Positions 17,857-22,507 of a DNA stretch of 33,142 bases are shown in pieces. A program made the position numbers and the translations under genes. Each line of letters begins with the position of its first letter. Within the stretch, counting starts at the first letter, position 1. The notes beneath the pieces were generated by a model that did not search any database, was not told the DNA's origin, and saw nothing but the letters and a program-made list of their open reading frames with translations. This DNA is from Nitrosopumilaceae archaeon (GTDB taxonomy: Archaea; Thermoproteota; Nitrososphaeria; Nitrososphaerales; Nitrosopumilaceae): contig UYNY03000046.1 in NCBI GenBank assembly GCA_900620265.3, positions 1-33,142 of the forward strand, in the 5' to 3' direction.

Positions 17857-17864
17857 GTATTTAG
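17857..17864 (-). promoter_or_regulatory. TATA-like box for the FkbM-like gene
   Basis: Minus-strand CTAAATAC centred 26-27 nt upstream of the GTG at 17834; it overlaps the stop of the PIN-domain gene. Confidence 0.55.
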
Positions 17865-18229
17865 TGTGTCTCGAGGACTATGCGATCCCCGTGGAAGGAC
17901 ATCACGGACCCGCCGGCCTCCCTGACCCGCCTCTTGAGGCCGCGGTCCATCGTGGCGATGATAACGCCGGACCCGGCGTGCGCCGCCAGGGCCCCGTCGG
18001 CAGTATCGCCCGGTATCTTGATCCTCTCCATCGGGGCGGCCCGCTCGAGCGCCGCCCCGGCGCCCGCCGACCTGGCCGGATCCCGCCGCAGCCCGCGCAG
18101 CTCCGAGACGACCTGCAGGGGGACTGCGAACCTGACCTGCCCCACCTCGGCCTCGAGCGAGTCGATGTTGTGTATGCGCCGCGTCGCAAGGTGGATCAGA
18201 AAGCTCGTGTCGCAGACGACCCTAGCCAA
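17861..18229 (-). CDS. PIN-domain ribonuclease (Fcf1/Utp24-like) linked to aIF2-gamma
   Basis: A 122-residue PIN-fold nuclease. The acidic active-site residues are visible: D7 in CDTSFLIHLA, E43 in VSELRGL, D78 in GDTADGALAA and D95 in IIATMDRGLKRR. The ATG at 18227-18229 overlaps the aIF2-gamma stop by 8 bp, so the two are translationally coupled. In many archaea a PIN protein related to the rRNA-processing factor Fcf1/Utp24 sits next to aIF2-gamma. That conserved neighbourhood favours a ribosome-biogenesis role over a VapC toxin. No antitoxin-like partner is present. Confidence 0.87.
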   Translation of the reverse strand: MARVVCDTSFLIHLATRRIHNIDSLEAEVGQVRFAVPLQVVSELRGLRRDPARSAGAGAALERAAPMERIKIPGDTADGALAAHAGSGVIIATMDRGLKRRVREAGGSVMSFHGDRIVLETH

Positions 18230-20234: not shown

Positions 20235-20258
20235 GTGGTATCGGGGGGACGGCGCCGG

Positions 20259-20265
20259 ATATAAC
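20259..20265 (-). promoter_or_regulatory. TATA-like box for the 57-aa zinc-ribbon gene
   Basis: Minus-strand GTTATATC centred 27 nt upstream of the ATG at 20234. Confidence 0.6.
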
Positions 20266-20423
20266 CGTTTGAGGGTCAGGCGGCGGGCCGCCTTTCCCGG
20301 ATGCGGGCGGGGGGACCCATGCGGGAGGGCCTGCAGGGGCACGATCAGGCCCACGCCGACCTCCGGAACCTCTGACACCAAACGGTGAAAACCGGCGCGT
20401 ATCACAGGACGCAGGAGTACTTT

Positions 20424-20433
20424 GGATAAAACG
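20424..20433 (+). promoter_or_regulatory. TATA-like element in the gene-poor region
   Basis: GGATAAAACG centred 29-30 nt before the ATG of a 32-codon frame at 20458. Strength and use are uncertain. Confidence 0.35.
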
Positions 20434-20457
20434 GAGCCGGGATGCCGGGTTTATTCC

Positions 20458-20556
20458 ATGGAAAACCAGCGCCTTAACGACGTTGCAATACGGCGGATGC
20501 GGCCGGTCTGGATCTTTTTCCCCGTCCTTATCATGAGCCGGTATAGCGCCACATGA
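20458..20556 (+). CDS. Candidate 32-aa ORF behind a TATA-like element
   Basis: A 32-codon frame (ATG at 20458, TGA at 20554-20556) encoding MENQRLNDVAIRRM, then a short hydrophobic run VWIFFPVLIM and SRYSAT. It starts about 29 nt after a TATA-like sequence, which fits the window's promoter rule. Nothing else supports coding. It could be a microprotein with a membrane-associated helix, a remnant of a longer gene, or chance. Confidence 0.25.
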   Translation: MENQRLNDVAIRRMRPVWIFFPVLIMSRYSAT

Positions 20557-20630
20557 TCCCCGCAGGATCCTACGCGGGGGACTGGCTCGCCCGCTTCAGC
20601 GTGACGGCCTTCTCCTCCCTGGTAGGCATG

Positions 20631-20646
20631 CGTGGGAGCTCCCACG
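20631..20646. repeat. Perfect 16-bp palindrome in the gene-poor region
   Basis: CGTGGGAGCTCCCACG reads identically on both strands. It could be a protein-binding site. It has no spacer for a loop, so a terminator hairpin is less likely. Confidence 0.7.
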
Positions 20647-20747
20647 GGATGCCATTCTTGATGTATAGTGCCCCGACTCGGGGGCCGGCTCGCCGCTCCC
20701 GGCGTATATGCGCTCAAACACAACCTAGTCCAGACCCCGGCCGCCCT

Positions 20748-20757
20748 CATATTTAAT
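20748..20757. promoter_or_regulatory. TATA-like element (ATATTTAAT) in the gene-poor region
   Basis: On the plus strand it lies about 29 nt before an 11-codon frame at 20781. On the minus strand it lies about 29 nt before a TTG at 20723 that opens a 90-codon frame ending at 20451. Neither frame looks conserved, so it may instead drive a non-coding RNA. Confidence 0.35.
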
Positions 20758-21197
20758 GCCGTTCTAGGCGCACAGGCATCATGACGCCTAGGCGGATCCC
20801 GTGCTTGGTGTGATACGGAATCTTTGGGCGGATCCCGGGAGCCGGACCGCGCGGGATGCCGGTATTGGCAACCGGTGTGGCGGGGAACGGTCGTCCTTCA
20901 CATCATGCATGACGGCGGGCCGGTTACCGTGTATGGGTGCCTTCCGGGCCCCGCAGGACGCAGGATCCCCCGTCGTGCCAGCAGGGGGGCGACGCCCGGG
21001 AGGGGGGGCCGAACCGCGTCCGGCGCATGACGCGGGAGGCGGCATACAGACCCCCGACCATGACGGATCCGCCCCGTTTCCATGCCGAAAGGCGGCGGGC
21101 GCGTCCGGGGGCTCGGAGTATCACGTCCCGCTAGAACGGCCTAGATGTATCTGCGGCTAGAGCCGCGCGGCCCGGTACATACCTCTATCATAGGCAC

Positions 21198-21217
21198 AAA
21201 ATACGGTAAAATACGGT
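21198..21217. repeat. 10-bp tandem repeat upstream of the Panacea gene, possible operator
   Basis: Two exact head-to-tail copies of AAAATACGGT, followed directly by an AT-rich run (ATAAAAATATAAG, 21218-21230) and then the probable TATA box. Position and direct-repeat form suit a regulator-binding site for autoregulation of the downstream pair. This is inference. Confidence 0.5.
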
Positions 21218-21231
21218 ATAAAAATATAAGT

Positions 21232-21240
21232 AGCTATATA
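21232..21240 (+). promoter_or_regulatory. TATA-like box for the Panacea / membrane-protein pair
   Basis: AGCTATATA, centred about 27 nt upstream of the ATG at 21264. A second AT-rich block at 21218-21230 could be an alternative box with a start about 20 nt earlier. Confidence 0.5.
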
Positions 21241-21250
21241 GATCGCCGGG
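21241..21250. repeat. Left copy of 10-bp direct repeat GATCGCCGGG
   Basis: Exact match to 22092-22101. The two copies bracket the Panacea / membrane-protein pair, 851 bp apart. A possible insertion scar, or chance in GC-rich DNA. Confidence 0.35.
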
Positions 21251-21263
21251 GACGTGGGACAGC

Positions 21264-21794
21264 ATGGAAGAGACCCGTCAGGAGCGGCCCGGCATGCCTA
21301 GCTATTCAGCCACCCTGCTTGCCGACTATATGATTGCAGAGGGCAACGGCAGGCTCACCCCGCTCCATGTAATAAAGCTGGTCTATATCAGTCACGGCTA
21401 CACGCTGGCCATACACAAGACGCCGCTGACGCATGACAGGATCGAGGCGTGGCGGTACGGTCCGGTGTTTCCAGTCCTGTATTACGCGCTAAAGCGTCAC
21501 GGGTCTATGCCCATATCCAACCTATATTATTGTGGGACACGGGCAGACGTGAACGGGATCAGGGATCGCGGGGACTTCTTCAATGACGTGATTAAAGAGC
21601 CGGCGCGGGACATACTGGATCGTGTCCTGCATGTATACGGCGGCCTAACCGGAAACCAGCTGTCGGCCCTCACGCACAAAAAGGACACGCCTTGGAAGCG
21701 GTACTACAAAGAGGGGCAGATGAACATAGTTATCCCAGACGAGGCGATCCAGAGCCACTATGAAAAGCTGATAAAAAATGACAAACGCATCTAA
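21264..21794 (+). CDS. Panacea-domain (DUF4065, GepA/SocA-like) protein, putative antitoxin
   Basis: A 176-residue protein with the Panacea fold. The diagnostic core is LTPLHVIKLVYISHGYTLAI (31-50), then PLTHDRIEAWRYGPVFPVLYYALKRHG (54-80), and a later GGLTGNQLSALTHKKDTPWKRYY. This family neutralises many unrelated toxins when paired with a small downstream gene. Here the downstream gene encodes a two-helix membrane protein and overlaps by 17 bp, matching PanAT architecture. The start at 21264 fits the TATA spacing. An internal ATG at 21294 (MPSYSATLLADYMI) resembles typical family N-termini and is an alternative. GC content is clearly below the window average, and the pair lies between a gene desert and a tRNA-Gly, suggesting mobility. 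Other roles of the family (phage-associated, proteolytic adaptor SocA) cannot be excluded. Confidence 0.85.
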   Translation: MEETRQERPGMPSYSATLLADYMIAEGNGRLTPLHVIKLVYISHGYTLAIHKTPLTHDRIEAWRYGPVFPVLYYALKRHGSMPISNLYYCGTRADVNGIRDRGDFFNDVIKEPARDILDRVLHVYGGLTGNQLSALTHKKDTPWKRYYKEGQMNIVIPDEAIQSHYEKLIKNDKRI

Positions 21795-22086
21795 TGAGGA
21801 GAGCCTAGAGGATACAATACGTCTTCGAGACGAATTGGGGGGCACGGATGTCGTCGAAGACCGCACGATGCAGGGCGGGCCACCGATGCAGAAAAAGACT
21901 GCGTTTTGGTACGCCATATCAATAGTATACGCGTCGTTCGCATTCATGGCCGTGGTGCTGTTTTTTAGCGGATTCCAATTCATGGGGTTTTATCTTGAGG
22001 CAAACGTCCTGATAGCGCTGATAGGCACGATAATCGGATCACAAACCATCATACTTTTGAAAAAAGTGCTGAACTATGTTTTCTAG
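21778..22086 (+). CDS. Two-helix membrane protein, putative toxin of the Panacea pair
   Basis: A 102-residue protein with a hydrophilic, acidic first 40 residues and two membrane segments: about 42-66 (FWYAISIVYASFAFMAVVLFF) and 72-94 (around NVLIALIGTIIGSQTIILL), ending LKKVLNYVF. The ATG at 21778 lies within the last codons of the Panacea gene, so translation is probably coupled. No catalytic motif is visible. By analogy with membrane-acting toxins paired with Panacea antitoxins it might permeabilise or depolarise the membrane; this is inference. Local GC is low (about 35% over 22021-22080 by hand count). It could alternatively be a membrane anchor or sensor for the Panacea protein. Confidence 0.7.
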   Translation: MTNASNEESLEDTIRLRDELGGTDVVEDRTMQGGPPMQKKTAFWYAISIVYASFAFMAVVLFFSGFQFMGFYLEANVLIALIGTIIGSQTIILLKKVLNYVF

Positions 22087-22091
22087 CAGAG

Positions 22092-22101
22092 GATCGCCGG
22101 G
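22092..22101. repeat. Right copy of 10-bp direct repeat GATCGCCGGG
   Basis: Exact match to 21241-21250, located six bases after the stop codon of the membrane-protein gene. Confidence 0.35.
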
Positions 22102-22396
22102 CTTTAACGCGGCGGCCTTTCTGGGTTCGCGGGATCCCGCTCTGGCCGCTATTTCCGATGCAGATACGGCGCCGAGATTCTAGCGCCCATCCGCATCCTC
22201 TCGGGACATCCCAAACACCGCGGCGGCCACGGGCACGATTCGGTGCCCACGGGGATGATCACAAGTCCGCGGGGCCGGCCTGGGCCCTTGGGCGGGCGCC
22301 CTCACGGGTTGAACCCAAGCCCCGGGATCCGCCGCCCCCGGGGGGCCGCAACCCCCCCCCCCGATCCGCGTGGACGCGTGGGGCCCCCTGGATCCA
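22102..22396. other. Gene-free stretch between the Panacea pair and tRNA-Gly
   Basis: About 0.3 kb with no convincing coding frame. It contains the perfect palindrome GCGGGATCCCGC (22129-22140), the inverted repeat GGGTT-G-AACCC (22306-22316) and an 11-base C run (22352-22362). No tRNA fragment or second attachment site was seen. Confidence 0.5.
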
Positions 22397-22400
22397 TTTA

Positions 22401-22408
22401 CTAAAATA
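22401..22408 (+). promoter_or_regulatory. TATA-like box for tRNA-Gly
   Basis: CTAAAATA, preceded by TTTA, centred about 29 nt upstream of the first tRNA base. Confidence 0.55.
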
Positions 22409-22433
22409 GGCCGTGTCAGGGCCCCCCGCGCAC

Positions 22434-22507
22434 GCGGAGTTAGTTTAGCCTGGTAGGACGTCAGCTTCCCAAGCTGAAGGCCGCGGGTTCAAATCCCGCA
22501 CTCCGCA
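22434..22507 (+). tRNA. tRNA-Gly (anticodon CCC)
   Basis: A complete cloverleaf of 74 nt. Acceptor GCGGAGT pairs with ACTCCGC, discriminator A. The D stem is GTTT/GGAC, the anticodon stem TCAGC/GCTGA with loop TTCCCAA giving anticodon CCC, and the T arm GCGGG-TTCAAAT-CCCGC. No intron is present and CCA is not encoded. It ends exactly one base before the stop codon of the convergent C39/TPR gene. The glycyl-tRNA synthetase that would charge it is encoded about 7.5 kb downstream. Confidence 0.95.

What the first reader, a model, noticed from the sequence alone, without database searches (positions are those of the whole stretch)
21264..22086. Candidate archaeal Panacea toxin-antitoxin pair with a membrane toxin
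Seen: a DUF4065/Panacea protein (IKLVYISHGYTLAI and EAWRYGPVFPVLYYALKRHG) overlaps by 17 bp the start of a 102-aa protein with two membrane segments; the pair has lower GC than the window, lies beside a gene desert and a tRNA, and has a repeat-bearing promoter. Known: Panacea is a promiscuous antitoxin domain, and some of its bacterial partners are small membrane proteins. Inference: the membrane protein is the toxin, and this is an archaeal member of a system described mainly in bacteria and phages. The partner has no recognised family, so it may be a new toxin type.
Basis: partly seen in the sequence, partly recalled or inferred. Interest (0 to 1): 0.8.

Follow-up and report, generated by a model that had tools for sequence, protein, structure and literature searches.

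The report
Archaeal Panacea toxin-antitoxin pair, membrane toxin
An ammonia-oxidising archaeon, possibly a sponge symbiont, carries a two-gene pair that looks like a toxin and its antidote; the small membrane toxin is of a kind already known in bacteria and phages, and the pair sits in a foreign insert beside a tRNA gene.

Summary
The pair is real. PanA (21264-21794) is a Panacea protein (E 1.4e-18). PanT (21778-22086, 102 aa) overlaps it by 17 bp and has two hydrophobic stretches. The toxin-antitoxin reading is supported by comparison, untested at the bench. Close PanT relatives lie directly after a PanA in 6 of 6 strong hits over 250 Nitrosopumilaceae genomes (3 independent of the query) and in 10 of 10 viral loci (2 independent). 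The nearest bacterial PanAs have a small membrane partner in 62 of 74 cases, against 18 of 275 control genes. "New toxin type" is not supported: an archaeal hairpin profile ranks 12 bacterial or viral PanA partners above every other ORF, and archaeal PanATs are in print. The pair lies in a ~2.15-kb insert between tRNA-Gly(CCC) and a zinc-ribbon gene, about 50 bp apart in 17 of 17 relatives with both. The genome has seven Panacea genes; some have lost the partner. Most likely mechanism: PanA holds PanT's N-terminal part; freed PanT depolarises the membrane, perhaps against viruses.

The parts
21264..21794 (+). panA: Panacea/DUF4065 protein, 176 aa, proposed antitoxin
   Evidence: PF13274 E 1.4e-18; phrog_1281 E 9.4e-37; modelled at pLDDT above 90 over most of its length
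21778..22086 (+). panT: 102-aa two-helix membrane protein, proposed toxin; overlaps panA by 17 bp
   Evidence: relative in Nitrosopumilus sp. D6 43% identical; codon-position identity 0.59/0.65/0.27; helical hairpin in a low-confidence AlphaFold2 model
21913..21969 (+). first hydrophobic stretch of PanT (residues 46-64)
   Evidence: KD mean 2.21; helix 39-67 in the model
22003..22059 (+). second hydrophobic stretch of PanT (residues 76-94)
   Evidence: KD mean 2.01; helix 75-101 in the model; aligns with bacterial and phage partners
21198..21218 (+). tandem direct repeat AAAATACGGTA, two copies sharing one base, upstream of panA; possible operator (inference)
   Evidence: 2 found, 0.06 expected
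21217..21230 (+). TATA-box-like stretch TATAAAAATATAAG before panA (inference from sequence)
20241..22433 (.). insert relative to relatives: everything between the zinc-ribbon gene and tRNA-Gly, with the pair and the non-coding stretches on both sides
   Evidence: tRNA and zinc-ribbon gene about 50 bp apart in 17 of 17 relatives with both, about 2.19 kb apart here
22434..22507 (+). tRNA-Gly(CCC) beside which the insert lies

Best explanation
A PanAT toxin-antitoxin pair. Proposed working: PanA and PanT are made together from overlapping genes; PanA binds the charged N-terminal part of PanT and stops its two-helix hairpin from inserting or assembling in the membrane. When PanA is removed or titrated (cue unknown, possibly virus infection), PanT inserts, dissipates membrane potential and stops growth. 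Shown here by computation: the gene pair, homology of PanA to Panacea, two hydrophobic stretches, PanA next to the strong PanT relatives found, homology of the hairpin to bacterial and phage PanA partners, insertion beside a tRNA. Inferred from validated relatives in the literature: toxicity, depolarisation, direct neutralisation. Speculative: the anti-virus role.
For: PanA is over the Pfam cut-off. PanT as query: 6 of 6 hits below E 1e-6 in 250 family genomes lie at PanA loci, 3 of them not in the query alignment; 10 of 10 viral loci found with phage and bacterial hairpins as query have a PanA just upstream, 2 of them new. Small membrane partner after PanA: 62 of 74 bacterial loci (1 of 75 dropped) and 46 of 77 viral loci (3 of 80 dropped), against 18 of 275 control genes of 150-220 aa in these loci. 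Archaeal hairpin profile against 8,910 ORFs of 160 loci: the first 14 hits are all PanA partners: one in the profile, one archaeal, 12 bacterial or viral (5 below E 0.01, 3 below 0.001). Profile-profile match to ten bacterial PanA partners chosen by eye: 92.4%. A partner annotated as PanT in E. coli phage PhiR47_1 scores 40.6 bits against that bacterial profile. PanA stands without an intact membrane partner in 8 of 20 family loci. Published membrane PanTs disrupt or depolarise the E. coli membrane, and Panacea can neutralise directly (passages and one section each of PMC8832971 and PMC10440598). The Y of AW-x-Y-GP and the H before the PW motif are present in the window's PanA (Y65, H138); that they match Y56 and H120 of Bartonella PanA is my inference from motif position.
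Against: No toxicity, complex or depolarisation measured. Of 25 pairs tested in PMC8832971, eight toxins were not toxic in E. coli and five were toxic but not rescued. Most viral loci overlap the query set, so '10 of 10' carries little independent weight. The PanT profile misses the more divergent partners (L002, L004, L007, L014, L213 are not among the hits), so neighbourhood was tested for close relatives only. The Y of AW-x-Y-GP is H or L in 5 of 15 AOA PanAs. The fused AlphaFold2 model says nothing on the interface and the PanT model is weak (pLDDT 66, pTM 0.36). The 20 loci were found through PanA, so intact PanA beside a broken partner is partly how they were picked, and some breaks may be assembly errors. 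One orphan PanT-like hairpin exists (L183).
Confidence: 0.75

Rival explanations
1. SocA-like proteolytic adaptor: PanA delivers PanT to an AAA+ protease instead of blocking it (type VI).
For: NF047745 (SocA antitoxin) matches PanA at 80.4 bits.
Against: That is far below its cut-off of 190 bits; the partner is a membrane hairpin. That SocB is a soluble replication inhibitor and SocA works with ClpXP is partly recalled (PMC8832971 passage calls SocA proteolysis-promoting and SocB replication-inhibiting).
Confidence: 0.09
2. Cargo remnant of a mobile element: the pair is not a working toxin-antitoxin system but an unselected leftover beside the tRNA.
For: Low third-position GC, insert beside tRNA-Gly, broken partners in several relatives, PanAs without partner L003 and L006.
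Against: Both frames are intact; the codon-position pattern against D6 shows protein-level constraint; window and D6 PanA pair at 100/94 support.
Confidence: 0.11
3. Regulated membrane protein, not a toxin: PanT is a harmless small membrane protein and PanA its cytosolic partner.
For: No direct test of toxicity; Panacea has been proposed to act as a sensor (PMC10440598).
Against: Three published membrane partners of PanA are toxic in E. coli; 8 of 20 PanA loci lack an intact membrane partner, which fits loss of a toxin better than loss of a useful protein.
Confidence: 0.05

Closest known systems
PanAT systems with membrane toxins (Kurata et al. 2022, PMC8832971; Ernits et al. 2023, PMC10440598)
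   Same: Panacea antitoxin first, small overlapping partner with charged N-terminal part and C-terminal membrane segments; hairpin homologous to bacterial and phage PanA partners
   Different: Archaeal host; the partner matches no curated family; toxicity untested.
PanT of Escherichia phage PhiR47_1 (PV340566.1, as annotated)
   Same: Follows PanA and scores 40.6 bits against the bacterial hairpin profile
   Different: 182 aa; only 3.5 bits against the archaeal profile
SocAB (type VI)
   Same: SocA carries the same domain (PMC8832971)
   Different: NCBIfam SocA cut-off not met; different partner

Membership tests
PanAT toxin-antitoxin | Panacea (DUF4065/PF13274) domain above gathering score | tested here: met
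   68.3 bits, cut-off 25.7
PanAT toxin-antitoxin | Two genes at most 100 nt apart, arrangement conserved across species | tested here: met
   Overlap 17 bp; related partner in the same place in D6 (L020, same locus as L210), L009 and L018
PanAT toxin-antitoxin | Partner toxic alone, relieved by PanA | not testable with these tools
   needs expression
PanAT toxin-antitoxin | Direct PanA-PanT complex | tested here: inconclusive
   Fused model: PanT part without usable alignment, no interface read-out
Membrane PanT hairpin of bacteria and phages | Sequence homology of the C-terminal hairpin | tested here: met
   First 14 hits among 8,910 ORFs are PanA partners; hhalign 92.4% to partners chosen by eye; another partner class not matched
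Membrane PanT hairpin of bacteria and phages | Membrane depolarisation | not testable with these tools
   needs assay
SocA (type VI antitoxin) | NCBIfam NF047745 cut-off | tested here: not met
   80.4 bits against 190
SocA (type VI antitoxin) | Adaptor for an AAA+ protease | not testable with these tools
   needs biochemistry

The most novel reading that the evidence does not exclude
Ammonia-oxidising archaea of this kind run a turnover of Panacea-guarded membrane toxins: pairs arrive from the bacterial and phage pool into tRNA-side sites, serve as virus-triggered membrane-depolarising suicide systems against an ether-lipid membrane whose potential carries ammonia oxidation, then lose the toxin while PanA stays on as an orphan antitoxin that protects against incoming pairs.
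Probability: 0.25. Interest if true: 0.62.

Novelty: new member of a known kind. Interest (0 to 1): 0.42.

Why it matters
In five literature searches, of whose papers I opened four and saw passages or sections, I met no report of a membrane PanAT tested in an archaeon. The pair gives a small, defined test of whether a bacterial-type membrane toxin works on an archaeal membrane. The seven Panacea loci of this genome, at different stages of partner loss and of GC drift, make toxin loss with antitoxin retention open to study in one organism.

Tried and rejected
New toxin family: rejected after the profile search. A second partner class of bacteria, with one membrane helix (A7): no match to the archaeal profile. 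Pfam and NCBIfam scans of ten bacterial hairpin partners: no family in more than one of the 10 members. Solved structures by sequence: none for the PanA profile at E 0.1, one irrelevant hit at E 0.65 for the hairpin profile. Foldseek of the fused model against the PDB: best E 0.19, nothing usable. Operator idea: the palindrome ACGGTA-N3-TACCGT occurs at two places in the genome, once before the PanA of L007 and once at C58:4300 before an ORF that looks like an antiporter by eye; it is not at the window's pair, so no claim. More distant Panacea-like proteins of the phylum: in 27 loci examined, 2 had a partner with one weak hydrophobic stretch; in several the Panacea ORF was assigned on a poor score, and matches without a fetched locus were not looked at. 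Anti-virus role: no evidence either way.

Changed on checking: the independence of the viral and archaeal PanT hits is now stated (2 of 10 and 3 of 6), and for that the confidence went from 0.77 to 0.75.

Full report
WHAT IS THERE. The window is contig C46 of a 2.0-Mb genome in 113 contigs, 96% complete. Named contigs with the nearest Panacea relatives are from Nitrosopumilus sp. D6, a Cenarchaeum sp. and other Nitrosopumilaceae or Thaumarchaeota. The high GC (0.61-0.73 in most bins) would fit a sponge symbiont: 'Ca. Cenporiarchaeum stylissum' has 66.24% GC (PMC6697440, passages). I did not establish the species. At 21264-21794 lies a Panacea protein with no other domain over a cut-off, and at 21778-22086 a 102-aa protein with two hydrophobic stretches. 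The overlap is 17 bp.

IT IS A GENE PAIR. The nearest relative, from Nitrosopumilus sp. D6 (L020; the same locus as L210), has a PanA 57% identical and a 113-aa partner 43% identical, aligned from its first residue. Codon-position identities of the partner, 0.59/0.65/0.27, are those of a coding sequence. Two more distant partners align over the hairpin (L009, E 5e-8; L018, E 2e-8; single comparisons).

HOW OFTEN. Panacea over the Pfam cut-off occurs in 10 of the 250 Nitrosopumilaceae genomes held, in 20 loci, seven of them in this genome. Partner state of the 20: small protein with at least one hydrophobic stretch and no break seen in 10 (window, L002, L004, L007, L009, L013, L014, L018, L210, L213); present without such a stretch in 1 (L005); broken or lost in 5 (L010, where the frame runs into an IS240-type transposase ORF; L011, L012, L019, L211); absent in 2 (L003, L006); not assessable in 1 (L017, unread base and odd contig); a weaker Panacea protein of another kind in 1 (L212). 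So in 8 of 20 PanA stands without an intact membrane partner. The loci were found through PanA, so this cannot show the reverse case, and assembly errors may explain single breaks.

PANT AS QUERY. The first profile (A5, four archaeal sequences) over 200 family genomes gave three of its own four members (the fourth's genome was not among the 200), one further hit at E 1.9e-5 and 27 weaker ones (E 0.0027 to 0.093), 17 of these with stops inside. The further hit (L183, genome G049) is a hairpin at the end of a 413-aa ORF without Pfam match; the only Panacea match of G049 is on another contig. I take it for a remnant. A broader profile (A10, 12 sequences) over all 250 gave six hits below 1e-6, all at PanA loci, three of them not in the profile (L009, L018 and the broken L019), and one at 0.0097 with stops; L183 was not among them. 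It did not find the more divergent partners of L002, L004, L007, L014 and L213, so this tests close relatives only. In 2.9 million viral contigs ten loci encode a relative of the phage and bacterial hairpin partners, and all ten have a PanA immediately upstream. Eight of the ten lie on contigs already met with PanA as query, seven of which supplied rows of the query alignment; two (L270, L274) are new.

WHAT THE PARTNER IS RELATED TO. 160 loci around the nearest PanAs in genomes and viral contigs (capped at the best 80 each) hold 8,910 ORFs of at least 45 aa. The archaeal profile ranks 14 PanA partners first; the first other ORF has E 0.61 and lies about 240 nt after a PanA. Of the 12 bacterial or viral ones only three are below 0.001 and five below 0.01, so the statement rests on the ranking more than on single E-values. 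Profile against profile gives 92.4% for ten hairpin partners that I had picked by eye, and no match for another partner class. The alignment shows a shared pattern: a helix, a short turn often with F-x-L, a second helix. A partner annotated as PanT toxin in E. coli phage PhiR47_1 scores 40.6 bits against the bacterial profile and 3.5 against the archaeal one. Among the nearest PanAs a small membrane partner follows in 62 of 74 bacterial and 46 of 77 viral loci, against 18 of 275 control genes from these loci; for the five archaeal loci it is 3 of 5. The hydropathy rule is crude but the same in all groups, and the viral loci include near-copies.

WHERE IT CAME FROM. In three relatives printed (L245, L246, L255) the order is UPF0182, an amidotransferase-like gene, the TPR gene, tRNA-Gly(CCC), S6e, eIF2-gamma (UPF0182 and amidotransferase named there by eye), with the zinc-ribbon gene between tRNA and S6e. 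Of 19 relatives' loci fetched (41 genomes searched, the window's included, 24 with a match), 17 have both the tRNA and the zinc-ribbon gene, and in all 17 these lie about 50 bp apart; here about 2.19 kb separate them. The other two are L247, with the tRNA but no zinc-ribbon match, and L252, where nothing matched. In L247's genome (G206) an ORF with a weak match to an archaeal phage integrase (PF16795, E 0.001, 19.5 bits, cut-off 27) lies on that side of the tRNA. So the pair and the 'gene desert' form one insert, probably at a site used by other elements. Third-position GC is 0.70 and 0.58 for the pair and 0.88-0.91 for three host genes; among the seven PanAs it runs from 0.37 (L002) to 0.83 (L003), as expected of arrivals of different age. 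In a tree of 89 PanAs (17 AOA rows, 72 from bacterial genomes; viral loci and doubles left out), window and D6 pair at 100/94; L003-L007 form one group at 100/96, a local expansion; 16 of the 17 AOA rows fall in one weakly supported group (89/79) with one bacterial row inside, and L012 lies outside.

HOW IT PROBABLY WORKS. Published membrane PanTs disrupt or depolarise the E. coli membrane, and in the Bartonella pair the Panacea domain itself is predicted, with mutational support, to contact the unstructured N-terminal part and the helix before the membrane segment (passages and sections read). The window's PanA has no extra domain over a cut-off, so direct neutralisation by Panacea is the likely mode. 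Its PanT has a charged N-terminal part (5 K/R and 9 D/E in residues 1-42) with a short predicted helix (10-19) before a two-helix hairpin (mean pLDDT 66). These steps are inferred. What triggers the system is unknown.

KNOWN OR NEW. Panacea proteins were reported in three archaeal phyla (PMC8832971) and predicted toxin-antitoxin pairs of the wider network in Thaumarchaeota (PMC10440598) (passages). A comparison of sponge Thaumarchaeota mentions toxin-antitoxin modules but has no occurrence of Panacea or DUF4065 in its main text (PMC7848895). Supplements could not be opened. I therefore file the pair as a new archaeal member of a known kind.

Noticed in passing
L001-L007 (own genome): Seven Panacea genes in one archaeal genome; PMC8832971 reports five taxa with more than five. 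L003 and L006 have no partner.
   Followed up: partly
L183:538-1779: PanT-like hairpin at the end of a 413-aa ORF without Pfam match, no Panacea on that contig; probably a remnant joined to another ORF.
   Followed up: partly
L263:1955-2704: Integrase-like ORF (PF16795, below cut-off) on the same side of the same tRNA-Gly in a relative.
   Followed up: partly
L007 and L004 upstream of panA; G000:C58:4300-4314: Palindrome ACGGTA-N3-TACCGT before the panA of L007, a near copy before that of L004; two perfect places in the genome.
   Followed up: partly
window 22098-22119: 22 nt just after panT are 77% complementary to the 3' part of the tRNA-Gly; could be a junction remnant or chance.
   Followed up: no
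L015:1354-2420: Panacea-like protein just below cut-off (24.8 bits, also weak winged-helix matches) followed by a 184-aa protein with three hydrophobic stretches.
   Followed up: no
window 17861-18229: PIN-domain protein (PF18477, E 6e-7) directly after the eIF2-gamma gene.
   Followed up: no
L003:1921-2832: ORF convergent with the partnerless panA, with an HGIYHA motif that recalls zinc metallopeptidases (recalled); no Pfam match at 0.01.
   Followed up: no
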